A DNA stretch of 64,000 bases from Marinobacterium halophilum (GTDB lineage: Bacteria > Pseudomonadota > Gammaproteobacteria > Pseudomonadales > Balneatricaceae): NCBI RefSeq assembly GCF_003014615.1, contig NZ_PYGI01000007.1, positions 1 through 64,000 on the forward strand. The letters are read 5' to 3'. Both the position numbers and the translations under genes were made by a program. Positions 2,546 to 24,838 of the stretch are shown piece after piece (positions within the stretch are counted from its first letter, which is position 1; each line of letters begins with the position of its first letter). The notes beneath the pieces were generated by a model. That model saw nothing but the letters and a program-made list of their open reading frames with translations. It did not search any database and was not told the DNA's origin.

Positions 2546-3409
2546 ATGCCGTCAGACTACTTTATTGGCCTACCGCAATGGAAACATCCGCAATGGAGCC
2601 GTTCGCTGCTGCAGGATCCTGTGCAGGGCGAGCTTGAGCAATATGCGGCGAGCTTCAACTCGGTAGAAGGGAATACTACGTTTTATGGTTTGCCGAGTGC
2701 AGCCAGTGTGTGCCGCTGGGACGAACAAACGCCTCCCGGCTTTCGCTTCTGCTTCAAATTTCCGCAGAGTATCAGTCATCAGGGCGCGCTGCGGAATGTG
2801 GATGCAGAAGCGAATGCGTTTCTCGACCGCCTGCAACCGCTGGCATCAAAACTGGGCATGTTATGCCTGCAGTTGCCTTCACGTTTTGGGCCTGAGCAGC
2901 TGCCAGATCTGATTCGTTTCCTGAGTGGTTTGCCGGCGGGGCTGCGCTATGCGGTCGAGGTGCGTCATCCCGCCTTTTTTCAGGAAGGGGACGATGAGCA
3001 GAGGCTGAATACGATTTTGCAGACGTTCGGCGTGAACCGGGTCAGTTTTGATACCCGTGCCTTGTTTGCCCATCCGCAACCGGATCCGGTGACACAGGAG
3101 GCGTTACAGCAGAAGCCACGGCTGCCGTTACGGGTGTTGGCGACCGGTGATGCACCGATGCTGAGGTTTATCGCGCCGTTGGATTTGCAGCAGGGGCAGC
3201 GTTGGTTGTCGCCCTGGGTGGACCAGGTTGTACGCTGGATCGGTGAAGGGCGTACGCCCTTCATTTTCATGCATACGCCCAGCAATGGTGAAGCGCCGGA
3301 GCTGGGTCGCTGGTTTGCACAGCAGTTGCAACAGCAGCAACCGCGCCTGCGCTCCGGATTCTCGGATTGGTCGTCATTCCGACGCGTGCGCCAGCCCGGC
3401 CTGTTTTAA
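2546..3409 (+). CDS. DUF72 (YecE-type) protein
   Basis: A 287-residue protein of the DUF72 family, a TIM-barrel-like fold of unknown biochemical role. Family landmarks are the N-terminal FIGLPQWKHPQW, the NSVEGNTTFYGLP segment, the FCFKFPQSISH strand, the AVEVRHPAFF motif and the FIFMHTPSNGEAP C-terminal motif. It diverges from the stator operon, and its stop lies two bases from that of convergent apaG. No strong ribosome-binding site is seen before the ATG. The family assignment is firm but no function can be given. Confidence 0.85.
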   Translation: MPSDYFIGLPQWKHPQWSRSLLQDPVQGELEQYAASFNSVEGNTTFYGLPSAASVCRWDEQTPPGFRFCFKFPQSISHQGALRNVDAEANAFLDRLQPLASKLGMLCLQLPSRFGPEQLPDLIRFLSGLPAGLRYAVEVRHPAFFQEGDDEQRLNTILQTFGVNRVSFDTRALFAHPQPDPVTQEALQQKPRLPLRVLATGDAPMLRFIAPLDLQQGQRWLSPWVDQVVRWIGEGRTPFIFMHTPSNGEAPELGRWFAQQLQQQQPRLRSGFSDWSSFRRVRQPGLF

Positions 3410-14928: not shown

Positions 14929-14989
14929 AGCTGACGGTATTTGAGTTTTCAGGTTGTGTGGGATCGACTTTTATCCTGTTTAGCTAAGT

Positions 14990-15006
14990 GATAACGTACT
15001 GTTATC
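14990..15006. promoter_or_regulatory. Candidate operator: inverted repeat before the Ter locus
   Basis: GATAAC and GTTATC form a perfect 6-bp inverted repeat separated by 5 bases, 42 bases upstream of the first Ter gene. The 17-bp size and position suit a dimeric repressor site. No cognate regulator gene is seen in the locus, so the role is inferred. Confidence 0.35.
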
Positions 15007-15028
15007 TTCATACCCACTGTTTGTATCA

Positions 15029-15043
15029 GCACACGGAGTGTGC
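15029..15043 (+). promoter_or_regulatory. Small hairpin holding the ribosome-binding site of the first Ter gene
   Basis: GCACAC-GGA-GTGTGC is a perfect 6-bp stem with a 3-base loop. GGAG, the only Shine-Dalgarno candidate for the ATG at 15048, spans the loop and the first stem base, so folding of the mRNA could limit initiation. Confidence 0.35.
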
Positions 15044-15047
15044 CTTC

Positions 15048-16187
15048 ATGAAAGTTATTGCTTTAGGCGCAAATGTCTCCATACCAAGTAGTAAATGTAC
15101 CTGGATGCTGACGTCAGCCAAGCACTCCTCTCTGGGTGAATATGCCGCTCTGGCCCTGTTGCCGGTTGATGCCAAGCGCCAGCCGCAAGGCAGTCCAGCA
15201 CTGTTTCATGTTGAGCAGTCATGGATGGAGTGGCAAGGCGATCCGCATACACCTCGTTGTGATATTGACCTCGACAAACTTCCTGATGGAAGTGATCGAG
15301 TACTGCTGGTGTTGTACACATTTTCTGCCCAAGGGCCTGTCAGCGAACTTGCAGGTGTGAAATTGCAGGTGAATGCTCAGATTGAACATGAAGTCGATCT
15401 GAGTGGGCATGGTGACGCAGCAATGATCATCGGAGAGTTCTACTGTCGTGCAGAGCAGTGGAAGTTTCGTGCGTTGGCAGAAGGGTCGGCCTATGGATTG
15501 GCGGCATTGGGACGCAGGTTGGGCATAGATATTGATGATGCTCATCCACGTAAAAGTGCAGAGGCTTCTCGACTCGGAGGGGCGCCTGCGCAGGCCAGCG
15601 GTTCAGGCTTTGCTGTGACACATAATCGTATTTTGACATGTGCGCATGTTATTGAAGGCATGAGCGATATCTATATCACTTCGTTTGAAGGACGCTACCG
15701 GGCAGAACCGGTGATGGTTGATCGTCAGAACGACTTGGCGCTGCTGCGCGTTCAAGATGTACCTGCGCTGATACCTGTTGTATTCAAAAACGGTGTGGGT
15801 TGTCAGTTGGGCGAAAAAATAGTGGCTTTGGGTTTTCCGCTGTCCGGGTTGGCGGGTGGCGGGGTGCATGCGACCAGTGGAGACGTATCTGCTCTGTTTG
15901 GCTTGCATAATGATGCCAGTCTGTTGCAATTCACCGCACCTATTCAACCGGGTTCTAGCGGTAGCCCTGTGTTGGATGGCTCTGGCGCTGTGATCGGTAT
16001 GGTTACATCGACAGTACCCGATGCTCAGAACATGAATTTCGCTGTGAAATCCGTGTTATTGGTCGCTTTTCTCGCGGCCTGTGGTGTCGACATACCTTCG
16101 AACTCCCTCAACCGGGATTGCCCCACTGCGGAAATGATCCGCACGCTTCAACCCTCTTTGTGGCGTATTGAGGCGAGAAATACATAA
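15048..16187 (+). CDS. TerD-like domain fused to trypsin-like serine protease
   Basis: A 379-residue fusion. Residues 1-160 resemble a TerD domain: GANVSIP at the start, IIGEFYCRAEQWKFRALAEG matching the '[18 protein letters not shown]' end of TerD. The Ca-binding [12 protein letters not shown] loop is lost. Residues 185-345 form a trypsin-fold protease with His200 (TCAHVIEG), Asp229 (RQNDLALL) and Ser304 (GSSGSPV). No signal peptide or membrane helix is visible, so it should act in the cytoplasm. I start at ATG 15048 (MKVIALGANVS), with GGAG 10 bases upstream. It opens the Ter locus, 11 bases before the PRTase gene. The target is unknown, and a stress-triggered protease role is an inference. 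Confidence 0.82.
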   Translation: MKVIALGANVSIPSSKCTWMLTSAKHSSLGEYAALALLPVDAKRQPQGSPALFHVEQSWMEWQGDPHTPRCDIDLDKLPDGSDRVLLVLYTFSAQGPVSELAGVKLQVNAQIEHEVDLSGHGDAAMIIGEFYCRAEQWKFRALAEGSAYGLAALGRRLGIDIDDAHPRKSAEASRLGGAPAQASGSGFAVTHNRILTCAHVIEGMSDIYITSFEGRYRAEPVMVDRQNDLALLRVQDVPALIPVVFKNGVGCQLGEKIVALGFPLSGLAGGGVHATSGDVSALFGLHNDASLLQFTAPIQPGSSGSPVLDGSGAVIGMVTSTVPDAQNMNFAVKSVLLVAFLAACGVDIPSNSLNRDCPTAEMIRTLQPSLWRIEARNT

Positions 16188-16198
16188 ATTTTCTGAGC

Positions 16199-17335
16199 AT
16201 GAATTACATGGATAGCATCACATCCCCCGAAAGACATAATGTGCAGCTGATGCGTGGTCAGCTGGAAGTCATGGTTGATCATGCAGTTATTGAACCTGAT
16301 CGCTTGTTTGATATTGCTGAGCGTCGGAATCCCCGGCGAGCCTTTCTATTTGTATCCAAAGTGTTAGGTCGTCACATTCCTGCACGCCCATCGCTGATGT
16401 CAGCCAGCGCTCAGCAGTTGGCTGATGGTATACCGGCTGATTTGCCCGGGCCCGTCTTGGTGGTGGGTATGGCAGAAACGGCTGTCGGTCTTGGTGCCAG
16501 TGTGCACCGTGCTTTCAGTACAGACCGTGATGATGTGGTTTACCTGACCAGCACTCGACACCCGCTGGGTACTGAACTCTTTACTCGATTTGAAGAAGAG
16601 CATAGTCACGCGAGTGCTCACCTTATCCACATGCCTCAGGACGATACACTCCGAGCGTTGATGTTGAATGCTCGCTCACTGGTCATGGTGGACGATGAGG
16701 CTTCAACCGGGAAAACATTTATTAATCTTTATCAAGCCTTGGTGAATGCAGGCTTGAAGCATGTTGAGCGAGTCGTGACATGTGTGTTGACGGACTGGTC
16801 ATCCGGCAGTGTCGGTGAGTCGATCGGGGTTCCTGTGTCTCAAACGTCCCTGTTACAGGGGCGCTATCAGTTTATTGAAGATCCTGAAGCTCCTCTGCCA
16901 GAAATGCCCGAAGTCGCGACGGTATCTGCCGGGGAGTGGCCGGTTCGCCCCGACAATGACTGGGGACGGCTGGGGACGCGTAATGTAAATGACACGCTGG
17001 CTCCAGGACTTCAGGTTCGTCCGGGTGAGCGTGTGCTTGTTGTTGGCACAGGGGAATTTGTATGGCGGCCTTTTTTGCTGGCTGAGCGTTTGGAGCGTGA
17101 AGGCGCTGACGTATTCTTCAGTTCTACGACGCGTTCTCCGATCGCTCGCGGTCATGCGATCAAGCATGCGCTTGCGTTCACGGATAACTACGGCCTTGGT
17201 ATTCCCAATTATCTTTATAACGTCCGTCCGGGTGAATTTGATCGAGTGTTGATCTGCTCGGAAACATCCGCTCAAGCCGTTAGTCGAGAGCTAACGGAGA
17301 TATTGCAGGCAGAGGTGATCGTAGATGCAGGCTGA
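16199..17335 (+). CDS. Ter-associated phosphoribosyltransferase with C-terminal TRSP domain
   Basis: A 378-residue protein. The PRPP-binding loop LVMVDDEASTGKTF (161-174), with the acidic pair and TGKT turn, identifies a type I phosphoribosyltransferase. The C-terminal part (about 275-378) carries the namesake TRSP motif at 311-314, which follows PRTase domains in Ter loci. It presumably joins a base-like group to ribose-5-phosphate in the proposed nucleoside-like metabolite pathway. The substrate is unknown. The next gene overlaps by 11 bases, so translation is coupled. An alternative start is ATG 16208. Confidence 0.82.
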   Translation: MNYMDSITSPERHNVQLMRGQLEVMVDHAVIEPDRLFDIAERRNPRRAFLFVSKVLGRHIPARPSLMSASAQQLADGIPADLPGPVLVVGMAETAVGLGASVHRAFSTDRDDVVYLTSTRHPLGTELFTRFEEEHSHASAHLIHMPQDDTLRALMLNARSLVMVDDEASTGKTFINLYQALVNAGLKHVERVVTCVLTDWSSGSVGESIGVPVSQTSLLQGRYQFIEDPEAPLPEMPEVATVSAGEWPVRPDNDWGRLGTRNVNDTLAPGLQVRPGERVLVVGTGEFVWRPFLLAERLEREGADVFFSSTTRSPIARGHAIKHALAFTDNYGLGIPNYLYNVRPGEFDRVLICSETSAQAVSRELTEILQAEVIVDAG

Positions 17336-18083
17336 GCGCCCATTAGTGTTTGTTGATCTTGATGACACTCTGTTCCAGACGGCTCGCAAAATGCTGCAGG
17401 GGGCTTCCCGGTATACCGCCACCCTCGATGCAGAAGGGCAACCTAATGGCTATATGAGTTCAGTGCAGAAAATGTTTGCCGATTGGTTGCTTGCCAGCGC
17501 AGATGTCGTACCGGTTACTGCTCGAAGCACCGATGTTTACCGAAGGGTTGTTCTGCCTTTTACCCAAGGAGCCGTGTGCTCTCATGGCGGTATTATCCTC
17601 CGTGCTGATGGCACACCGGATCAGGATTGGGCGATGCAAATGGCAGCTACACTGGAGCCCTTGCAGGAGCGGCTTCATGCCTTGACTGTCCATATCCTGG
17701 AAGCAGGAGAGATGATTGGTGTGTCATTGCGTACATGGGTCGTTGAGGAAGCGGGTATAGGCCAATATGTAGTGGCGAAGCACAATGGTGCTGGGGACGC
17801 CGTGTTAGGTGACGTATTGGCTGTAATCAAAGCCAAAGGTCTGGTAGCCGGTATGCATGTCCACCGTAACGGGAATAATTTGGCACTCCTTCCTGTGGGT
17901 TTAGAGAAAAAACATGCCGTACAGGAATGGCTGCGCAGGGATAGAGAAATACATGGAGAGCGTCCTGTTCTGGGAATGGGTGACAGTATTACTGATCTTG
18001 GCTTCATGCAGTCATGTGATTTATGGGCAACCCCTTCGGGCAGTCAGTTGGCTGCTCTGGTAGAGGATAATAGTCATGACTGA
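17325..18083 (+). CDS. HAD-family hydrolase of the Ter enzyme module
   Basis: A 252-residue haloacid-dehalogenase-fold hydrolase. Motif I is VFVDLDDTLF (Asp11 nucleophile, Asp13 acid/base), motif II is VVPVTARST, and motif IV is GMGDSITDLGFM. The size and cap arrangement resemble Cof-type sugar phosphatases. In Ter loci such a HAD protein is proposed to dephosphorylate the PRTase product. It overlaps its upstream and downstream neighbours (11 and 8 bases), so the four enzyme genes are probably made in step. The substrate is not known. Confidence 0.85.
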   Translation: MQAERPLVFVDLDDTLFQTARKMLQGASRYTATLDAEGQPNGYMSSVQKMFADWLLASADVVPVTARSTDVYRRVVLPFTQGAVCSHGGIILRADGTPDQDWAMQMAATLEPLQERLHALTVHILEAGEMIGVSLRTWVVEEAGIGQYVVAKHNGAGDAVLGDVLAVIKAKGLVAGMHVHRNGNNLALLPVGLEKKHAVQEWLRRDREIHGERPVLGMGDSITDLGFMQSCDLWATPSGSQLAALVEDNSHD

Positions 18084-19173
18084 CAAACTGGCTGCGCTGG
18101 AAACGGTAGGCAGTGGCAGTTATGCCACTGCCGATGTGCATTTTCTGTTGCGCGCTGTAGAAGTCGATACAACGGATATCGAAGAAAAGGAGCGCTTGAT
18201 ACAGAGCGGTCAAAAGCATTATTCCGACATGATAAGTTTGGAACGTCCGCCTTCTGAGATGCACATGGCACTGTATACGCAGGCAATGGAGCGCAACAGC
18301 TGCCGAATGTCCAAGGATATACAGTCGTTGGCGCAAGCGTTACACACTTTGTATGCTGGAGAGCCTTTGGCTCTGGTGTCGTTTGTCCGTGCAGGCTTGC
18401 CGCCTGGGGTGCTTTTGCGCCGTGCGCTTGAAGGGATGGGCCTAACAACGCGACATTACGGTATTAGTATCGTGCGTGACCGGGGGATCGATACCGTTGC
18501 ACTGGACGCTGTAATCGAAGCTCATGGCGCAGCTAATATTGTTTTCGTGGATGGATGGACTGGCAAGGGAGCTATTGCCGGTGAATTGCAAACGGCACTC
18601 AGTCAAGATCCACGTTTTCCGGAGAAGCCTCGACTCGTAGTACTGGCCGATCCGTGTGGGCGTGCCTGGCTGGCGGCTTCTGCAGATGACTGGGTTATTC
18701 CGTCCGGCATTCTGGGGGCTACTGTTTCCGGGCTGGTATCGCGATCTATCTGGCCGACAGATGACGGCCTGCATGGCTGTGTTGTTTATGAGCATCTGCG
18801 GGAGCATGACATGACCCGTGCGTTTATTGATCATATCGACGCCGAACGGGTGCAATTGGGGCCAGTTGCTTCAGCGACGCCGTGGAGTGAGAGTAAAAAA
18901 GAGTCCCTCCAGATCAAGGCTTCAGGGGTCATCAGCATGCTGGCCGAGCGCTTTGATGTCACTAACGTCAATAGAATAAAACCAGGCATTGCAGAAGCGA
19001 CTCGTGCTGTATTGAGGCGGGTTCCTGACCGTGTTCTGGTACGTGATCGCGGGGATGCTGATGTGCAGTTGTTACAGTATCTGACTGATCGGGCTGGCGT
19101 CGCAGTCGAAGAGGTGGGCGATGATATTGCGCCATATAAAGCCGTTACCATTATCAAGGCGGTAGGCCAATGA
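18076..19173 (+). CDS. StiP-type phosphoribosyltransferase with PELOTA RNA-binding domain
   Basis: A 365-residue protein. The N-terminal 260 residues resemble the family annotated as 'StiP' or 'cysteine protease StiP', which carries a PRTase-like fold: VSFVRAGLPPGVLL, then VFVDGWTGKGAI (157-168), which is a PRPP-loop variant. The C-terminal about 50 residues (DRVLVRDRGDADVQLLQYL ... VTIIKAVG) match the PELOTA-type RNA-binding domain found in Ter modules. It could make or modify a base-ribose bond, or act on an RNA; neither is shown. Starts and stops overlap the flanking genes by 8 and 4 bases. The protease label in databases is probably historical, as no catalytic set is evident. Confidence 0.8.
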   Translation: MTDKLAALETVGSGSYATADVHFLLRAVEVDTTDIEEKERLIQSGQKHYSDMISLERPPSEMHMALYTQAMERNSCRMSKDIQSLAQALHTLYAGEPLALVSFVRAGLPPGVLLRRALEGMGLTTRHYGISIVRDRGIDTVALDAVIEAHGAANIVFVDGWTGKGAIAGELQTALSQDPRFPEKPRLVVLADPCGRAWLAASADDWVIPSGILGATVSGLVSRSIWPTDDGLHGCVVYEHLREHDMTRAFIDHIDAERVQLGPVASATPWSESKKESLQIKASGVISMLAERFDVTNVNRIKPGIAEATRAVLRRVPDRVLVRDRGDADVQLLQYLTDRAGVAVEEVGDDIAPYKAVTIIKAVGQ

Positions 19174-20132
19174 GCATGCCTTCACCTTATGCATTGGGTG
19201 CCACCCTTTACATGCCAGCCACCCGCGGAGATCTGCTGGATGTAGTGTTTCGTGACAAGCTTCCCTCGCTTAGATCTCTGGTGATATGTCTGGAAGATGC
19301 GGTGGCCGAGATCGATGTGGCGACGGCCTTGGCTAATCTGTCTCGACTGTTAAGCGCAATCGACCAGCGGGGAGGGCGTCTTGAAGAGGGGCCCTTGCTA
19401 TTTGTACGACCCCGCGATGCGAAAATGGCCGAGATACTGAATGAGTGGTCATTGATCAAACATGTCGATGGCTTTGTTGTGCCCAAGCTGACGTTGGGAA
19501 ACCTTTTATCTTGGCAGAAGGCGGTAACGAATCCAGAACTTTGCCTGATGCCTACACTGGAAACACCGGATGTTTTCAGTCCGGAATCCATGACGAATCT
19601 GGCCGAAGCGCTTCAGGAAACCCTTCACGACCGTATCATAGCGCTAAGGATTGGAGGGAACGATCTACTAGGTGGGTTGGGGCTGCGGCGCAACCCGGTT
19701 ACGACGCTTTATAGCACACCGATGAGCTATGTGATCTCGATGCTTTCAGGCGTGATGGGGTCGCACGGTTTTGCGCTGACAGCACCGGTGTTTGAGCAGC
19801 TATCGACGCCGAGGCTTCTTGAGCAGGAGCTGGAGCTTGATGTGGCGCATGGACTTGTTGGAAAAACAGCGATTCATCCGGATCAGATCGATATTATTCA
19901 CGATAAATTGCGTGTCAGCCTGGATGATCTGAATTCGGCACGCCAGATTGTTCAGGAAAAAACGACAGCGGTATTCAAGCATAACGATGCAATGTGTGAG
20001 CCTGCGACGCATTACAAATGGGCTACCAATATATTGGAACGCGCCAAGTGGCATGGGGTTCAGCAGCCGTGTGAGAGACATGGTCGCGAGCCTTTTCAGG
20101 TGCAGGCGCGTGTGGCAGATTTCGGCTGCTGA
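19170..20132 (+). CDS. HpcH/HpaI-CitE-like C-C bond lyase of the Ter module
   Basis: A 320-residue TIM-barrel enzyme resembling CitE/HpcH aldolases. LYMPATRGDLL, the acidic CLEDAV segment, LFVRPRD, MPTLETPD and the C-terminal GLVGKTAIHPDQIDIIH motif are all visible. In Ter loci this C-C lyase family accompanies the PRTases and HAD hydrolase. It presumably cleaves or forms a C-C bond in the shared metabolite. The start overlaps the previous stop by 4 bases (ATGA). About 137 bases without a gene follow before terZ, so the second half of the locus may have its own promoter, but I could not pick one. Confidence 0.85.
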   Translation: MSMPSPYALGATLYMPATRGDLLDVVFRDKLPSLRSLVICLEDAVAEIDVATALANLSRLLSAIDQRGGRLEEGPLLFVRPRDAKMAEILNEWSLIKHVDGFVVPKLTLGNLLSWQKAVTNPELCLMPTLETPDVFSPESMTNLAEALQETLHDRIIALRIGGNDLLGGLGLRRNPVTTLYSTPMSYVISMLSGVMGSHGFALTAPVFEQLSTPRLLEQELELDVAHGLVGKTAIHPDQIDIIHDKLRVSLDDLNSARQIVQEKTTAVFKHNDAMCEPATHYKWATNILERAKWHGVQQPCERHGREPFQVQARVADFGC

Positions 20133-20269
20133 TGGCTTCTTGGCGTATAAAAGGCTGTCGAAAGCATAATAAGTAGATGGCCAGCAGCCCAAACGATTGA
20201 ACGAAATAGCCGAACTTGATGTCGGTAGAAATGCGAACTCAAATTACTAACGTAACAAGGAATGTGAAA

Positions 20270-20854
20270 ATGGCGCTGACGCTGAGTAAGAATCAAAGTA
20301 TTTCCCTGGAGAAAACCGCCGGAACCGGTTTGACGTCTATCAGCCTTGGTCTTGGCTGGGACCCTGTGAAAACCGGTTTCCTGGGCAAGCTGATGGGTGG
20401 CGGCAGCATCGATCTGGATGCTTCTTGTATCCTGTTCGATCAGGGGCTTCAGCCAATTGATGTTGTCTGGTTTCGGCAGTTGGCATCCAAGGATGGTTCT
20501 GTCACTCATTCCGGAGACAATCTGACTGGGGAGGGTGATGGTGATGATGAGACTATCCATGTAAACCTGCCGAATCTGCCTGCTGCGGTTAAGCACTTGG
20601 TATTCACCGTGAACAGTTTTACCGGTCAAAATTTCGAGAAAGTCGAGAATGCGTATTGCCGCATACTGGATCAGGCAGGTAATAAGGAGTTGGCGCGCTT
20701 CAATCTGTCTGAAAAGGGCCAGCACACCGGTATTGTCATGTCCACCCTGACTCGAGAAGGCAGTGGCTGGCAGTTTAAGGCCATAGGCCAAACAACTCGT
20801 GGCCGCACGGTTGACGATTTGGTTGGCTTGGCTGCTCAGGCGGTACGTTCATGA
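20270..20854 (+). CDS. terZ: TerD-family protein TerZ
   Basis: A 194-residue TerD-fold protein closest in layout to TerZ: GLGWDPVKTGFLGK with a Gly-rich insert before SIDLDAS, VWFRQL, and the Ca-binding loop [13 protein letters not shown]. The tail GRTVDDLVG is as in TerZ rather than TerD or TerE. TerD-fold proteins bind calcium cooperatively and are thought to sense metal or membrane stress with TerC. I start at ATG 20270 with AAGG about 10 bases upstream. The stop overlaps terA by 4 bases (ATGA). Confidence 0.9.
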   Translation: MALTLSKNQSISLEKTAGTGLTSISLGLGWDPVKTGFLGKLMGGGSIDLDASCILFDQGLQPIDVVWFRQLASKDGSVTHSGDNLTGEGDGDDETIHVNLPNLPAAVKHLVFTVNSFTGQNFEKVENAYCRILDQAGNKELARFNLSEKGQHTGIVMSTLTREGSGWQFKAIGQTTRGRTVDDLVGLAAQAVRS

Positions 20855-22002
20855 TAGCACTGGTGCCTGGAGGTAACGCTCCGGTCACATCCGGGCAGGT
20901 TTACGTCAAAATCGATTACACACCTGTTCCCAATGCCGATATTGATGTGTCCGGTTTTGCCTTGGGTGCGGCTGGAAAAGTACGTGGCGACGGTGACATG
21001 TGCTTTTATGGTCAGACCCGTGTGCTGGACAGTGCTATCCAGATGACAGAGTCATCGGCGGGCCTCGCTGTTTTTGTATTGGATTTAAGTCGGTTGGAAA
21101 GTGGGATCGACAAGGTGGCGTTAACCGCGACAATCCATGAGAACAAGGCAAGCTTTGACCGTGTATCTCGGCTATCGGTTTCTGTTGGCGATGATATCGT
21201 TGCCGATATTCCTACTACAGGAATGCAGGAGACCGCTCTGATTCTTGGCGAAATCTATCGGCGCGCAGAGGGGTGGAAGTTTCGTTGTGTTGCTCAAGGC
21301 TTTGCGGGAGGACTTGAACCATTAGCTGAGCACTTTGGGGTTGAGGTTGCGGCATCTGCCGCTTCCACCCCGCCACCGCCACCGCCACCTCAAGGCAAAC
21401 CGTCGGTTAATTTGAGCAAGGTTACCCTTGATAAAAGCCGTTCGTCGATCAGTCTGGCAAAAAGTACGGCCGACTTTGGGGAAATCAAGGTCAATCTCAA
21501 TTGGCACCGTGGCACCAGTGGTGGCTTTTTTTCTCGTAACCGTGCTATCGATCTTGATGTCGGCTGTTTGTTCGAGTTGAAAAACGGAAGCAAGGGGGTT
21601 GTCCAGGCGCTGGGTAATGCCTTTGGTGACCTTGCATATGAGCCTTACATTCAATTGATGGGCGATGATCGGACAGGGTCCATCGATGGCGGTGAATGGC
21701 TTCATATCAACGGACACAAGTGGAGCGAGATTCGTCGCGTGCTGGTGTACGCGTTTATTTATGAAGGTGCACCTGACTGGAAGCAAACCGATGGCGTCAT
21801 CACGATTCATATGCCTGACCAGCCAGACATTGAAGTTCGTTTGAACGAGGAGGGTGGGCGCTACGGAATGTGTGCAATTGCGATGCTGGAAAATGACAAC
21901 GGTGCAGTCAAGATTACCCGTCTGGTTGACTTCCATAAAGGACATTCCTATATGGATAAGGCCTATGGCTGGGGAATGCGCTGGAGTGCAGGTTCTAAAT
22001 AG
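20851..22002 (+). CDS. terA: Tellurium resistance protein TerA (two TerD-like domains)
   Basis: A 383-residue protein with two TerD-like domains. The first (about 1-165) ends in LGEIYRRAEGWKFRCVAQGFAGGL but has lost the Ca-binding loop. A Pro run (174-180) and linker follow, then a second domain (about 185-383) with a partial loop GDDRTGSIDGGE and the TerA-typical WLHINGHKWSEIRRVLVYAFIYEG segment. It is coupled to terZ by a 4-base overlap. As in enteric ter operons it lies between terZ and terB. It probably acts as a non-signalling scaffold partner of the calcium-binding paralogues, which is an inference from the degenerate sites. Confidence 0.92.
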   Translation: MIALVPGGNAPVTSGQVYVKIDYTPVPNADIDVSGFALGAAGKVRGDGDMCFYGQTRVLDSAIQMTESSAGLAVFVLDLSRLESGIDKVALTATIHENKASFDRVSRLSVSVGDDIVADIPTTGMQETALILGEIYRRAEGWKFRCVAQGFAGGLEPLAEHFGVEVAASAASTPPPPPPPQGKPSVNLSKVTLDKSRSSISLAKSTADFGEIKVNLNWHRGTSGGFFSRNRAIDLDVGCLFELKNGSKGVVQALGNAFGDLAYEPYIQLMGDDRTGSIDGGEWLHINGHKWSEIRRVLVYAFIYEGAPDWKQTDGVITIHMPDQPDIEVRLNEEGGRYGMCAIAMLENDNGAVKITRLVDFHKGHSYMDKAYGWGMRWSAGSK

Positions 22003-22049
22003 TAGTCACCGGCAGGCGTGTGCCTGTCGCCACTTTTGAGGAATACATT

Positions 22050-22499
22050 ATGCTTGATTGGTTGAAAACAAATGCGACAGCAGCGCGTAACAAGCTGAGT
22101 ACTGAAGTGGGCAAGTTCAAGAACAAGGACTTCATGACGGCAACAGCGAACGCTTGTGCGATGATTGCTGCGGCGGACGGTGAGGTTTCATCTGCCGAAA
22201 AGATGAAAATGACCGGCTTTATTAACAATAGTCCCGAGCTACAAGTATTTAATCTTAAAGATGTGATCAAGGTTTTCAATGATGCTTGTGGCAAGTTTGA
22301 ATTCGATTTCCAGATCGGTCAGGCTGAGGCGTTAAAAACAATCAACAAGATCAAGAGTAATGATGGCGCTGCTCGGTTGTTGGTGCGTGTTGCCTGTGCC
22401 ATTGGTGCTTCGGATGGTGATTTTGATGGCAAGGAAAAAGATGCTTGTCGTTTGATCTGTAAGGAGCTGGGTCTCAATCCGGCCGACTTCGACCTCTGA
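22050..22499 (+). CDS. terB: Tellurium resistance protein TerB
   Basis: A 149-residue all-helical TerB. The paired acidic repeats AMIAAADGEVSSAEKMKM and AIGASDGDFDGKEKDA are the expected metal-binding elements. TerB sits on the inner face of the membrane and bridges TerC and the TerD-fold proteins. I start at ATG 22050 (MLDWLKTNATAARNK) with GAGG about 9 bases upstream. Ten bases separate it from terC, whose ribosome-binding site overlaps the end of terB. Confidence 0.93.
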   Translation: MLDWLKTNATAARNKLSTEVGKFKNKDFMTATANACAMIAAADGEVSSAEKMKMTGFINNSPELQVFNLKDVIKVFNDACGKFEFDFQIGQAEALKTINKIKSNDGAARLLVRVACAIGASDGDFDGKEKDACRLICKELGLNPADFDL

Positions 22500-22509
22500 G
22501 GATCCAATA

Positions 22510-23541
22510 GTGGAGACGACACAACTGGGCTTCCCACCGTTAACGATGGCCGTATTTGTTGGCATTGCCTTAGGTGCTTTGCTGCTGGATATGGTGACAC
22601 ATCGGGACGAAAAACCGATTACTTTGCTGCGAGCCTCAGTTTGGTCTGTTTTTTGGGTCGCTATCTCTCTGGCTTTTGCTGGTTTCCTTTATGTTCAGCA
22701 CGGGCCGGATATAGCCTCATTGTTCATTACAGGCTATGCACTTGAAAAAGTGCTAAGTGTCGATAATCTGTTTGTGTTCATGGCCATATTTGCATGGTTT
22801 AAGGTTCCAGATGGGCTTCGGCACAGGGTGCTTTACTGGGGCATTATTGGGGCTATCGTGTTCCGTGGCATCTTTGTGGTTATCGGGACGGGGTTGTTGG
22901 CGTTCGGACCCTGGGTCGAGATCCTGTTTGCAGTCATCGTAGCCTGGACGGCGGTGATGATGCTCAGGTCTGAAGAGGGGGACGAAGAAGAAGACTACTC
23001 TCAGCATATGGCTTACCGTTTTGCCCAAAAACTGTTTCCGGTTTGGCCCAAACTATATGGGCACAATTTTTTTGTATCTCGGAAAAAGCTGGAAATTGAA
23101 GTCCAGAAACCTGAAAACAGTGGTATCAGCCTGGCTACGAAAGGCAAAATTTTTGCAACTCCACTGCTATTGTGCCTATTTGTGGTTGAGGTGTCAGATG
23201 TCCTGTTTGCATTTGATTCGGTACCTGCGGTGATAGCCGTTAGCCGTGAGCCTCTGATCGTATATTCCGCGATGCTGTTTGCGATTCTTGGTTTGAGGAC
23301 GCTCTATTTCGTACTTGAAGCACTCAAGCGATACTTGGTGCATTTGGAAAAGGCCGTAATCGTGTTGCTGTTTTTCATTGCTGGAAAGCTGGCATTGAAT
23401 GCAACTAATCACCTTTTTCACCACGGTATAAGTATTGATCCCGATACTAGTCTGCTCATCGTGTTGGTGGTGTTGGCGATCGGTATTGTGGCCAGTGCTC
23501 TTTTCCCTGAAAAAGAAGAAGCACAGACCGATAGTTTGTAA
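22510..23541 (+). CDS. terC: Integral membrane protein TerC
   Basis: A 343-residue polytopic inner-membrane protein with about nine hydrophobic segments. The TerC signatures are TGYALEKVLSVDNLFVF and its inverted counterpart VVEVSDVLFAFDSVPA, each carrying the acidic membrane residues typical of the family. An acidic cytoplasmic loop (EEGDEEEDYSQ) lies mid-protein. TerC proteins handle Mn/metal export, and in Ter systems they form the membrane anchor of the sensor complex. The start is GTG 22510 with GAGGAT upstream. By eye its base composition is more AT-rich than the flanking housekeeping genes. Confidence 0.95.
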   Translation: METTQLGFPPLTMAVFVGIALGALLLDMVTHRDEKPITLLRASVWSVFWVAISLAFAGFLYVQHGPDIASLFITGYALEKVLSVDNLFVFMAIFAWFKVPDGLRHRVLYWGIIGAIVFRGIFVVIGTGLLAFGPWVEILFAVIVAWTAVMMLRSEEGDEEEDYSQHMAYRFAQKLFPVWPKLYGHNFFVSRKKLEIEVQKPENSGISLATKGKIFATPLLLCLFVVEVSDVLFAFDSVPAVIAVSREPLIVYSAMLFAILGLRTLYFVLEALKRYLVHLEKAVIVLLFFIAGKLALNATNHLFHHGISIDPDTSLLIVLVVLAIGIVASALFPEKEEAQTDSL

Positions 23542-23577
23542 TTTTCCGTAGCAAAAAACTTACAAGGAGAAGTATTC

Positions 23578-24153
23578 ATGGCTTTGTCTCTGCAAAAAGG
23601 CGGCAATCTGTCTCTGTCAAAAACTGATCCGAGTTTGACCAAAATACTGGTCGGGCTGGGTTGGGATCCGCGAGCTACTGATGGCACAGAGTTCGATCTG
23701 GATGCGAGTGCATTTCTATTGAATGCGGCGGGTAAGGTGCGTGGTGAAGCGGATTTTATTTTCTACAACCAACTGCGCAGTGTCGAAGGAGCTGTAGAGC
23801 ATACTGGGGATAACCGCACCGGTGAGGGTGATGGCGACGATGAGGTTATTAAGGTAGATCTCAGTCTGGTTCCTGCTGACATTGACAGGATCGCTTTCAC
23901 TGTCACTATTCATGATGCTGAAGCCCGCAAACAGAATTTTGGTCAAGTCAGCAACTCGTTTATTCGTGTTGTGAATGAAATCTCGGGTGCAGAAATTGTG
24001 CGTTATGATTTGGCCGAGGATGCATCAACTGAAACAGCAATGATTTTTGCCGAGTTGTATCGGCATAATGGCGAATGGAAGTTCCGTGCAGTAGGCCAAG
24101 GCTATGCCGGAGGGCTTAAGGCATTGGCCAATGGCTATGGAATGAATTTCTGA
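23578..24153 (+). CDS. terD: Tellurium resistance protein TerD
   Basis: A 191-residue canonical Ter[31 protein letters not shown], an intact calcium loop [33 protein letters not shown], and the C-terminal [23 protein letters not shown]. TerD binds two calcium ions and is one of the genes essential for tellurite resistance in enteric ter operons. AAGGAGA stands about 7 bases before the ATG, the best Shine-Dalgarno of the locus, so high expression is likely. The gene is 36 bases after terC. Confidence 0.96.
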
Positions 24154-24180
24154 TATTTTCTTATTACAAGGAGTAGGGTA

Positions 24181-24759
24181 ATGGCTATTAGTTTGTCCAA
24201 AGGCGGTAATGTATCTCTCACCAAGGAAGCGCCTGGTTTGAGTGAAATTATTGTGGGTTTGGGTTGGGATCCGCGTGTAACAGACGGGACTGAATTTGAC
24301 CTGGATGCATCTGTGTTTATTACGGGTGAAGATGGTAAGGTTCTGAATGATTCCAGCTTTATTTTCTACAACAATAAACAATCAGCAGACGGTTCTGTTG
24401 AGCACCAGGGCGATAATCGCTCCGGTGAAGGTGAGGGCGATGACGAGCAAGTCGTTGTCAAACTGACTGGGCTGGCAGCAGACGTTAAAAAGCTGGTGTT
24501 CGCTGTGACTATTCACGAAGCAGAAGCCCGCCAGCAGAACTTTGGTCAGGTTTCCAACGCCTTTATCCGTGTTGTGAATAAAGCGGATAATAAGGAAATT
24601 GCTCGTTTTGACCTGTCTGAGGATGCATCGGTCGAGACTGCCATGATCTTTGGTGAAGTATACCGTCATAATGATGAGTTCAAATTCAAAGCTATTGGTC
24701 AGGGTTTTGCTGGCGGCCTCAAGCCGTTGGCAGAGGCGCACGGCGTCAATATCGGTTAA
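24181..24759 (+). CDS. terE: Tellurium resistance protein TerE
   Basis: A 192-residue TerD-fold paralogue in the TerE position: [37 protein letters not shown] and [22 protein letters not shown] lies just upstream of the ATG. It is the last gene of the locus, and a strong hairpin terminator follows within 30 bases. terF is absent. TerD and TerE look like an old tandem duplication, since their conserved blocks line up along the whole length. Confidence 0.95.
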
Positions 24760-24782
24760 TACGGTGAAAAAATAACCGTATG

Positions 24783-24819
24783 AAAAAAGGCCGGTCCCTT
24801 TAAGGGAACCGGCCTTTTT
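24783..24819 (+). terminator. Rho-independent terminator of the Ter locus
   Basis: AAGGCCGGT ... ACCGGCCTT forms a GC-rich stem continued by a CCC/GGG extension, with an A tract before and a TTTTT tract after. It can end transcripts in either direction, serving terE and the convergent gatB. Confidence 0.9.
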
Positions 24820-24838
24820 GTATAAAATACAGCTGAGT

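What the first reader, a model, noticed from the sequence alone, without database searches (positions are those of the whole stretch)
15048..24759. Eleven-gene Ter locus with protease, metabolite-synthesis and sensor modules in one run
All eleven genes lie on one strand and end at one strong terminator. Seen: a TerD-like-protease fusion, four overlapping enzyme genes, then terZ-terA-terB-terC-terD-terE. Known: Ter systems combine calcium-binding TerD proteins, TerB/TerC and a nucleoside-like metabolite module. Having a cytoplasmic trypsin-like protease as the first gene of such a set is the novel-looking part. A working model is that the TerD/TerC complex senses stress, the enzymes make a small signal, and the protease is the output.
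Basis: partly seen in the sequence, partly recalled or inferred. Interest (0 to 1): 0.75.

Follow-up and report, generated by a model that had tools for sequence, protein, structure and literature searches.

The report
Known Ter stress locus with protease
This is an eleven-gene bacterial stress locus of a type that is common in Pseudomonas and its relatives, protease fusion included; what stands out is that this copy lacks one enzyme of the usual set and that the protease seems to belong with the sensor proteins rather than with the metabolite enzymes.

Summary
In detail: eleven + strand genes at 15048-24759, led by a TerD-like/trypsin-like fusion with an intact triad. The 'novel-looking' part is not new: a TerD-trypsin fusion was listed in Pseudomonas syringae in 2008 (PMC2605481), and 62 of 80 fusion-bearing loci hold the eleven genes in this order. 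It is a low-GC island; StiP is absent from one same-genus and five same-family genomes. (1) The ATP-grasp gene found in 71 of 80 fusion loci is missing from this locus and genome. (2) The fusion's TerD-like part lacks TerD's acidic loop in 81 of 81 proteins: more likely a TerA-like docking domain than a calcium sensor. (3) Protease and metabolite module are separable: Ventosimonas keeps fusion plus ter genes with no StiP or PRTase_2 found in its genome; two enterobacterial ter plasmids keep the module without the fusion. Best reading: a known kind of locus whose HtrA-type protease is an optional partner of the TerD/TerA/TerC core. No function was tested.

The parts
15048..16187 (+). TerD-like (TerA-N-like) domain fused to HtrA-type Trypsin_2 serine protease, 379 aa; triad H200, D229, S304
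   Evidence: Pfam TerD and Trypsin_2; triad invariant in 81 of 81; HtrA/Deg relatives in the PDB; model with a weak stretch at 170-181 between two parts
16199..17335 (+). phosphoribosyltransferase (PRTase_2) with TRSP domain
   Evidence: PRTase_2 E 1.4e-58, TRSP E 1.4e-23
17325..18083 (+). HAD-like phosphatase
   Evidence: no Pfam match; weak HAD-SF-IIB match (E 5e-5, below cut-off); homologues at the same place loci
18076..19173 (+). StiP domain plus PELOTA_1 (L7Ae-like) domain
   Evidence: StiP E 3.8e-89; L7Ae match E 3e-4; model pLDDT 94.4
19170..20132 (+). C-C bond lyase (TIM barrel family)
   Evidence: E 3.2e-100
20270..20854 (+). terZ (TerD domain, acidic loop present)
20851..22002 (+). 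terA (TerD domain without the acidic loop, plus a C-terminal half)
22050..22499 (+). terB
   Evidence: E 1.5e-21; start read
22510..23541 (+). terC, membrane protein family
   Evidence: E 8.8e-42; TIGR03718 above cut-off
23578..24153 (+). terD, acidic loop present
   Evidence: E 1.8e-87; PDB 2kxt E 1.6e-90
24181..24759 (+). terE, acidic loop present
   Evidence: 280 bits
24789..24819 (.). G+C-rich hairpin with T-run, possibly shared with convergent gatB
   Evidence: read by eye; equivalent after gatB in a same-genus genome without the locus
14929..24838 (.). probably acquired island between gph and gatB, GC 50.6% against 57.6% and 57.4% in the flanks
   Evidence: in same-genus G263 gph and gatB lie about 0.8 kb apart

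Best explanation
This is a probably horizontally acquired Ter stress-response island of the type common in Pseudomonas. TerZ, TerD and TerE (acidic-loop TerD proteins), TerA, TerB and the membrane protein TerC would form the sensing assembly at the membrane (from the literature). The first gene makes an HtrA-type serine protease whose N-terminal TerA-like domain docks it onto that assembly (inferred); stress-induced rearrangement of the assembly would switch the protease on or present a substrate to it (inferred). The PRTase, HAD, StiP-PELOTA and C-C lyase genes are a separate metabolite module, usually inherited with it but not required for keeping the protease. Shown here: gene content, intact triad, missing acidic loop, separability of protease and metabolite module, and absence of the ATP-grasp gene. 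Not shown: any activity, any complex, any substrate. Confidence about 0.95 for what the locus is and about 0.4 for the docking mechanism.
For: Gene content. 62 of 80 fusion loci hold the eleven genes in the same order. Triad invariant in 81 of 81, also when rows were picked without use of the serine motif (one search had used it). Acidic loop in 0 of 81 fusions, but found 218 times in 75 of the 80 loci and in window TerZ, TerD and TerE. Ventosimonas: fusion plus TerD, TerC and TerA, with no StiP and no PRTase_2 found in the genome. Enterobacterial ter plasmids: module and ter core without fusion. Island. A predicted membrane-associated TerC complex, with some experimental support, is described in passages of PMC8115787.
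Against: Ventosimonas is one genome, of untold completeness, and its fusion lies about 2.5 kb from the nearest ter-type gene on the other strand. G199 carries a different fusion, about 26 kb from its row of TerD genes. The 80 loci were found by searching with the fusion, so their conserved order does not measure how often Ter loci carry it; in the order sample only 2 of 11 StiP-positive genomes have it, and those two also hold the module, which fits coupling as well. No complex was modelled. The fusion model has pTM 0.61.
Confidence: 0.5

Rival explanations
1. One reading: the TerD/TerC complex senses stress, the enzymes make a small signal, the signal activates the protease as output.
For: In 62 of 80 fusion loci all modules lie in one order on one strand; in the order sample fusions of the window's kind occur in 2 of 11 StiP-positive and 0 of 183 other genomes.
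Against: Fusion retained with no StiP or PRTase_2 found in the Ventosimonas genome; module without fusion in two enterobacterial plasmids and without an adjacent fusion in 10 of 12 other StiP stretches (L145 and L154 reach a contig end, and G068 of L143 has a fusion on another contig); ATP-grasp gene absent here and in five Burkholderia genomes while the fusion stays.
Confidence: 0.15
2. The fusion is a quality-control protease for the Ter assembly itself, trimming or clearing TerD-type proteins, like other HtrA/Deg proteases.
For: Closest solved relatives are HtrA/Deg proteases.
Against: Two enterobacterial ter loci do without it; Pfam finds no PDZ domain.
Confidence: 0.2
3. The fusion is a growth-arrest or cell-suicide effector against phage or colicin, as trypsin-like domains are in some defence systems.
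For: PADLOC profiles RT-Protease_XI, LmuA and Avs1b match its protease part. PMC9796965 passages cite Whelan 1995 for phage and colicin resistance from ter genes.
Against: The PADLOC matches lie within the generic protease domain (residues 181-335), so they show domain kinship, not membership; no defence genes were sought around the loci.
Confidence: 0.15
4. The protease is a passenger that spread with the cluster in Pseudomonas and has no function tied to Ter.
For: Absent beside many StiP genes; in G074 its frame ends early, at about residue 314 of the query.
Against: It is fused to a Ter-type domain, its triad is invariant in 81 of 81, and it stays near ter genes when the metabolite module is gone.
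Confidence: 0.1

Closest known systems
TerD-Tryp architecture, P. syringae YP_273108.1 (PMC2605481, 2008)
   Same: N-terminal TerD module followed by a trypsin-like protease; such fusions head ter loci in many Pseudomonas
   Different: The passages seen report the architecture, not the operon, and say it is not functionally characterised
Pseudomonas megaplasmid and chromosomal ter loci, e.g. NZ_CP133095.1 (L126)
   Same: Same order fusion-PRTase-HAD-StiP-lyase-terZABCDE, 58-88% identity by gene
   Different: L126 has an ATP-grasp gene before the fusion and a second HAD gene before terZ, both absent from the window
Enterobacterial plasmid ter loci (L124 Klebsiella, L125 E. coli)
   Same: PRTase, HAD-like, StiP and lyase genes plus terZABCDE
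   Different: Two divergent gene sets, ATP-grasp present, no fusion protease, and further genes annotated as TerD family, vWA, TerY-C and PP2C phosphatase
Ter-dependent stress response systems (Anantharaman, Iyer and Aravind 2012)
   Same: Ter core with a predicted nucleoside-like metabolite module (recalled, and as cited in PMC8115787 passages)
   Different: Paper not held, so whether it already describes the protease fusion could not be checked

Membership tests
Ter stress-response locus | TerD-family proteins with the acidic loop together with TerB and TerC | tested here: met
Ter stress-response locus | Metabolite module PRTase-TRSP, HAD, StiP-PELOTA, C-C lyase | tested here: met
   the HAD gene only by homology and a weak NCBIfam match
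Ter stress-response locus | ATPgrasp_Ter ligase (PF15632) in the module (usual, not universal: a match in 4 of 12 other StiP stretches) | tested here: not met
   none in the window; the only genome match is a 1087-aa frame, 33.5 bits, probably carbamoyl-phosphate synthase (the name is inference); no match with the Pseudomonas plasmid protein
Ter stress-response locus | Confers tellurite, phage or colicin resistance | not testable with these tools
   needs experiments
TerD-trypsin fusion | TerD-type domain N-terminal to Trypsin_2, triad intact | tested here: met
TerD (calcium-binding) | Acidic loop GDNxTGxGxGDDE and DLDAS in the fusion's N-domain | tested here: not met
   strict loop 0 of 81; a loose DLDAS-like match in 1 of 81; that these are the ligand regions is recalled
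HtrA/Deg protease | HtrA-like protease domain | tested here: met
   NCBIfam full-length cut-offs not reached
HtrA/Deg protease | PDZ domain and export signal | tested here: not met
   no PDZ; no strongly hydrophobic N-terminus by a simple hydropathy scan, not a trained predictor
Anti-phage protease systems (RT-Protease_XI, LmuA, Avs1b) | Match beyond the protease domain | tested here: not met
   matches confined to the protease part

The most novel reading that the evidence does not exclude
Ter systems of Pseudomonas and relatives contain a dedicated output arm: a cytoplasmic HtrA-type protease held on the TerD/TerA/TerC membrane assembly by a calcium-insensitive TerA-like domain and switched by it, independent of the nucleoside-like metabolite. 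The old question of what Ter does would then become a search for one protease substrate.
Probability: 0.3. Interest if true: 0.65.

Novelty: new member of a known kind. Interest (0 to 1): 0.3.

Why it matters
The biologically relevant function of the ter operon is called unknown in the abstract of PMC9933665. A conserved, apparently active protease tied to the sensor core gives a concrete, testable output, and genomes that lack either the metabolite module or the ATP-grasp gene show which parts can be studied apart.

Tried and rejected
Novel fusion: rejected after PMC2605481. Dead protease: not supported, triad invariant in 81 of 81; one search had picked its rows with a serine-motif pattern, so I repeated it without, with the same result. 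Calcium sensing by the fusion's own domain: made unlikely. ATP-grasp moved elsewhere in the genome: not supported. Shared ATP-grasp-less ancestry with Burkholderia: not supported, because the tree puts the window with Oceanobacter (which has the gene) and needs two changes; both branches are long, so the exact place is unsure. Other fusions in the order sample: several N-domain matches lie in frames of 405-455 aa; one search shows they are terA-like, with a protease beside the match only in the own genome and G380. Phage-borne origin of the fusion: the phage collection gave 4 records, protease part only, none covering 80% of the query. StiP as a cysteine protease: the 26-row alignment has no invariant or nearly invariant Cys, while its RAGxP and VDGWTGKG motifs and predicted alpha/beta order look phosphoribosyltransferase-like to me; but hhalign against PRTase_2 was not significant (probability 1.2%), so this stays a lead. 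Literature searches showed no functional study of the fusion among the rows listed; one search found no paper, and the 20 rows listed by one search (of 184) looked unrelated. Papers seen: passages of PMC2605481, PMC8115787, PMC9796965, PMC11167607 and PMC10853773 (the last two only as reference entries); outline and abstract of PMC9933665; the rest only as search listings.
Full report
What is there. Eleven + strand genes run from 15048 to 24759. Pfam names nine of the ten scanned: a TerD-like/Trypsin_2 fusion, PRTase_2-TRSP, StiP-PELOTA_1, C-C_Bond_Lyase, TerD (terZ), TerD (terA), TerB, TerC and TerD; the third gene has no Pfam match and a weak HAD match in NCBIfam; terE scores 280 bits to TerD. 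The enzyme genes overlap by 11, 8 and 4 bp. The fusion lies 11 bp before the PRTase gene and 119 bp after gph; 137 bp separate lyase and terZ (with the terZ start corrected to 20270). The end hairpin faces convergent gatB and has a counterpart after gatB in a genome without the locus, so it need not be the operon's own.

It is probably an acquired island. GC is 50.6% between gph and gatB against 57.6% and 57.4% in the flanks. In the same-genus genome G263, gatB and gph lie about 0.8 kb apart with a 195-aa lipoprotein-like reading frame between them, so the site is variable rather than strictly empty. StiP has no match at E 0.001 in G263 and in the five same-family genomes of the sample; over the curated cut-off it is in 11 of 194 genomes of the order and 8 of 229 of the class, own genome included in both.

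The fusion is old and widespread. A scan of genome contigs with the fusion gave 156 relatives, of which the best 80 loci were kept: mostly Pseudomonas, also Burkholderia, Thiothrix, Thiofilum, Oceanobacter, Ventosimonas, Stutzerimonas, Enterobacillus, Parachitinimonas and Fluviicoccus. 62 of the 80 hold the window's eleven genes in the same order on one strand, 6 the same without a terC match, and 12 differ; of these 12, L010, L018 and L033 are cut by contig ends. All 62 also have an ATP-grasp match and 58 of them a second HAD gene between lyase and terZ, so none of the 80 shows exactly the window's reduced set. These loci were chosen for having the fusion. Among plasmids, 127 records hold a match covering 80% of the fusion, while 2562 hold one covering 80% of StiP. 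The TerD-Tryp architecture was tabulated for P. syringae in 2008 and called not functionally characterised (PMC2605481, passages).

The protease looks active. H200, D229 and S304 are invariant in 81 of 81 sequences, with rows picked by similarity alone, and every one of the 80 fetched fusions is one open frame over at least query residues 7-375. Relatives of known structure are HtrA/Deg proteases. The protease half is better conserved than the N-terminal half in each of the eight loci printed. No PDZ domain was found by Pfam, and there is no strongly hydrophobic N-terminus by simple hydropathy. The AlphaFold2 model has mean pLDDT 83.3 and pTM 0.61, with a weak stretch at 170-181 between the two parts. 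Against this, the more distant fusion of G074 ends early, at about residue 314 of the query.

The N-terminal domain is not a TerD calcium sensor by sequence. It matches only profile positions 84-183 of TerD. The acidic loop GDNxTGxGxGDDE is in 0 of 81 fusions, whereas the same pattern occurs 218 times in 75 of the 80 loci and in window TerZ, TerD and TerE but not TerA. The alignment resembles the N-domain of TerA (window and nine relatives), and in the order-wide search the second-best place in the own genome is terA. That this loop holds calcium ligands is recalled from work on TerD, not taken from a call.

One enzyme is missing. 71 of 80 loci have an ATP-grasp match; the Pseudomonas plasmid protein used as query matches ATPgrasp_Ter PF15632. 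The window has none. The own genome gives only one marginal match, inside a 1087-aa frame that is probably carbamoyl-phosphate synthase (the name is inference), and none with the plasmid protein. Of the nine loci without it, L010 is cut at the contig end; L069 and L080 have it elsewhere in their genomes; four Burkholderia genomes have no match and a fifth, G426, only a marginal one at 19.7 bits; Ventosimonas has none. The fusion tree places the window beside Oceanobacter L057, which has the gene (support 99/91), and needs two changes for the six labelled ATP-grasp-less rows (window and five Burkholderia; Ventosimonas was not labelled), so the loss looks independent. The second HAD gene is absent too. 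Either the window's metabolite lacks a ligation step or a housekeeping enzyme supplies it (inference). ATP-grasp is not universal in StiP loci at large: 4 of 12 other stretches have a match.

The modules separate. Ventosimonas L045 has fusion, TerD, TerC, TerA and a HAD gene, while no StiP and no PRTase_2 was found in its genome, whose completeness is not told. G199 (100% complete) has a row of TerD genes and a complete-TerD/Trypsin_2 fusion about 26 kb away, with no StiP or PRTase_2. Conversely, one Klebsiella and one E. coli plasmid locus have the module without the fusion. Of 12 StiP stretches fetched from other genomes, 2 have the fusion (L144, L152); L145 and L154 reach a contig end, and G068, the source of L143, has a fusion on another contig. 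In the order sample fusions of the window's kind are in 2 of 11 StiP-positive and 0 of 183 other genomes, so the two are associated but not obligate partners. I take the protease to be a partner of the TerD/TerA/TerC core.

Known functions. [quoted passage not shown] pneumoniae strain and that terZ-F confers it on E. coli MG1655, and describe a predicted membrane-associated TerC complex and a predicted nucleoside-like metabolite. [quoted passage not shown] PMC9796965 passages cite phage and colicin resistance. None of the passages seen addresses the protease.

Verdict. A real, conserved, already recorded type of locus; this copy is a new member with a reduced gene set that lacks the ATP-grasp gene. 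The coupling of an apparently active protease to the Ter core is a good hypothesis, with no experimental test seen in the searches made; the key 2012 paper could not be read.

Noticed in passing
window 18076-19173: StiP is named a cysteine protease in Pfam, but 26 aligned members have no invariant or nearly invariant Cys; motifs and predicted alpha/beta order look phosphoribosyltransferase-like. The profile comparison with PRTase_2 was not significant.
   Followed up: partly
L142:3122-4342 (G199) and L141:6378-7616 (G068): A second kind of fusion, with a complete TerD domain and Trypsin_2 (Pfam scan for L142 only), lies beside genes that look like biotin synthesis (L142 scanned), away from the TerD gene row.
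   Followed up: partly
L061:9327-9873: In Burkholderia sp. D-99 the ATP-grasp match comes in overlapping pieces in different frames, as if the gene is decaying.
   Followed up: no
L057 (Oceanobacter) and L019, L025, L028, L029, L040 (Burkholderia): These six fusion loci lack a terC match; in L057 the terD match is also partial.
   Followed up: no
L140, about 2790-3390, reverse strand: In the same-genus genome G263 the place of the ter island holds a 195-aa reading frame that looks like a lipoprotein.
   Followed up: no
L151 and L152 (G355, G380, same genus): Two congeneric ter loci differ: G380 has the fusion between ATP-grasp and PRTase, G355 has an MFS transporter on the other strand there.
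   Followed up: no
L144 (G074): The fusion frame next to this StiP module stops early, at about residue 314 of the window protein, just after the catalytic serine.
   Followed up: no
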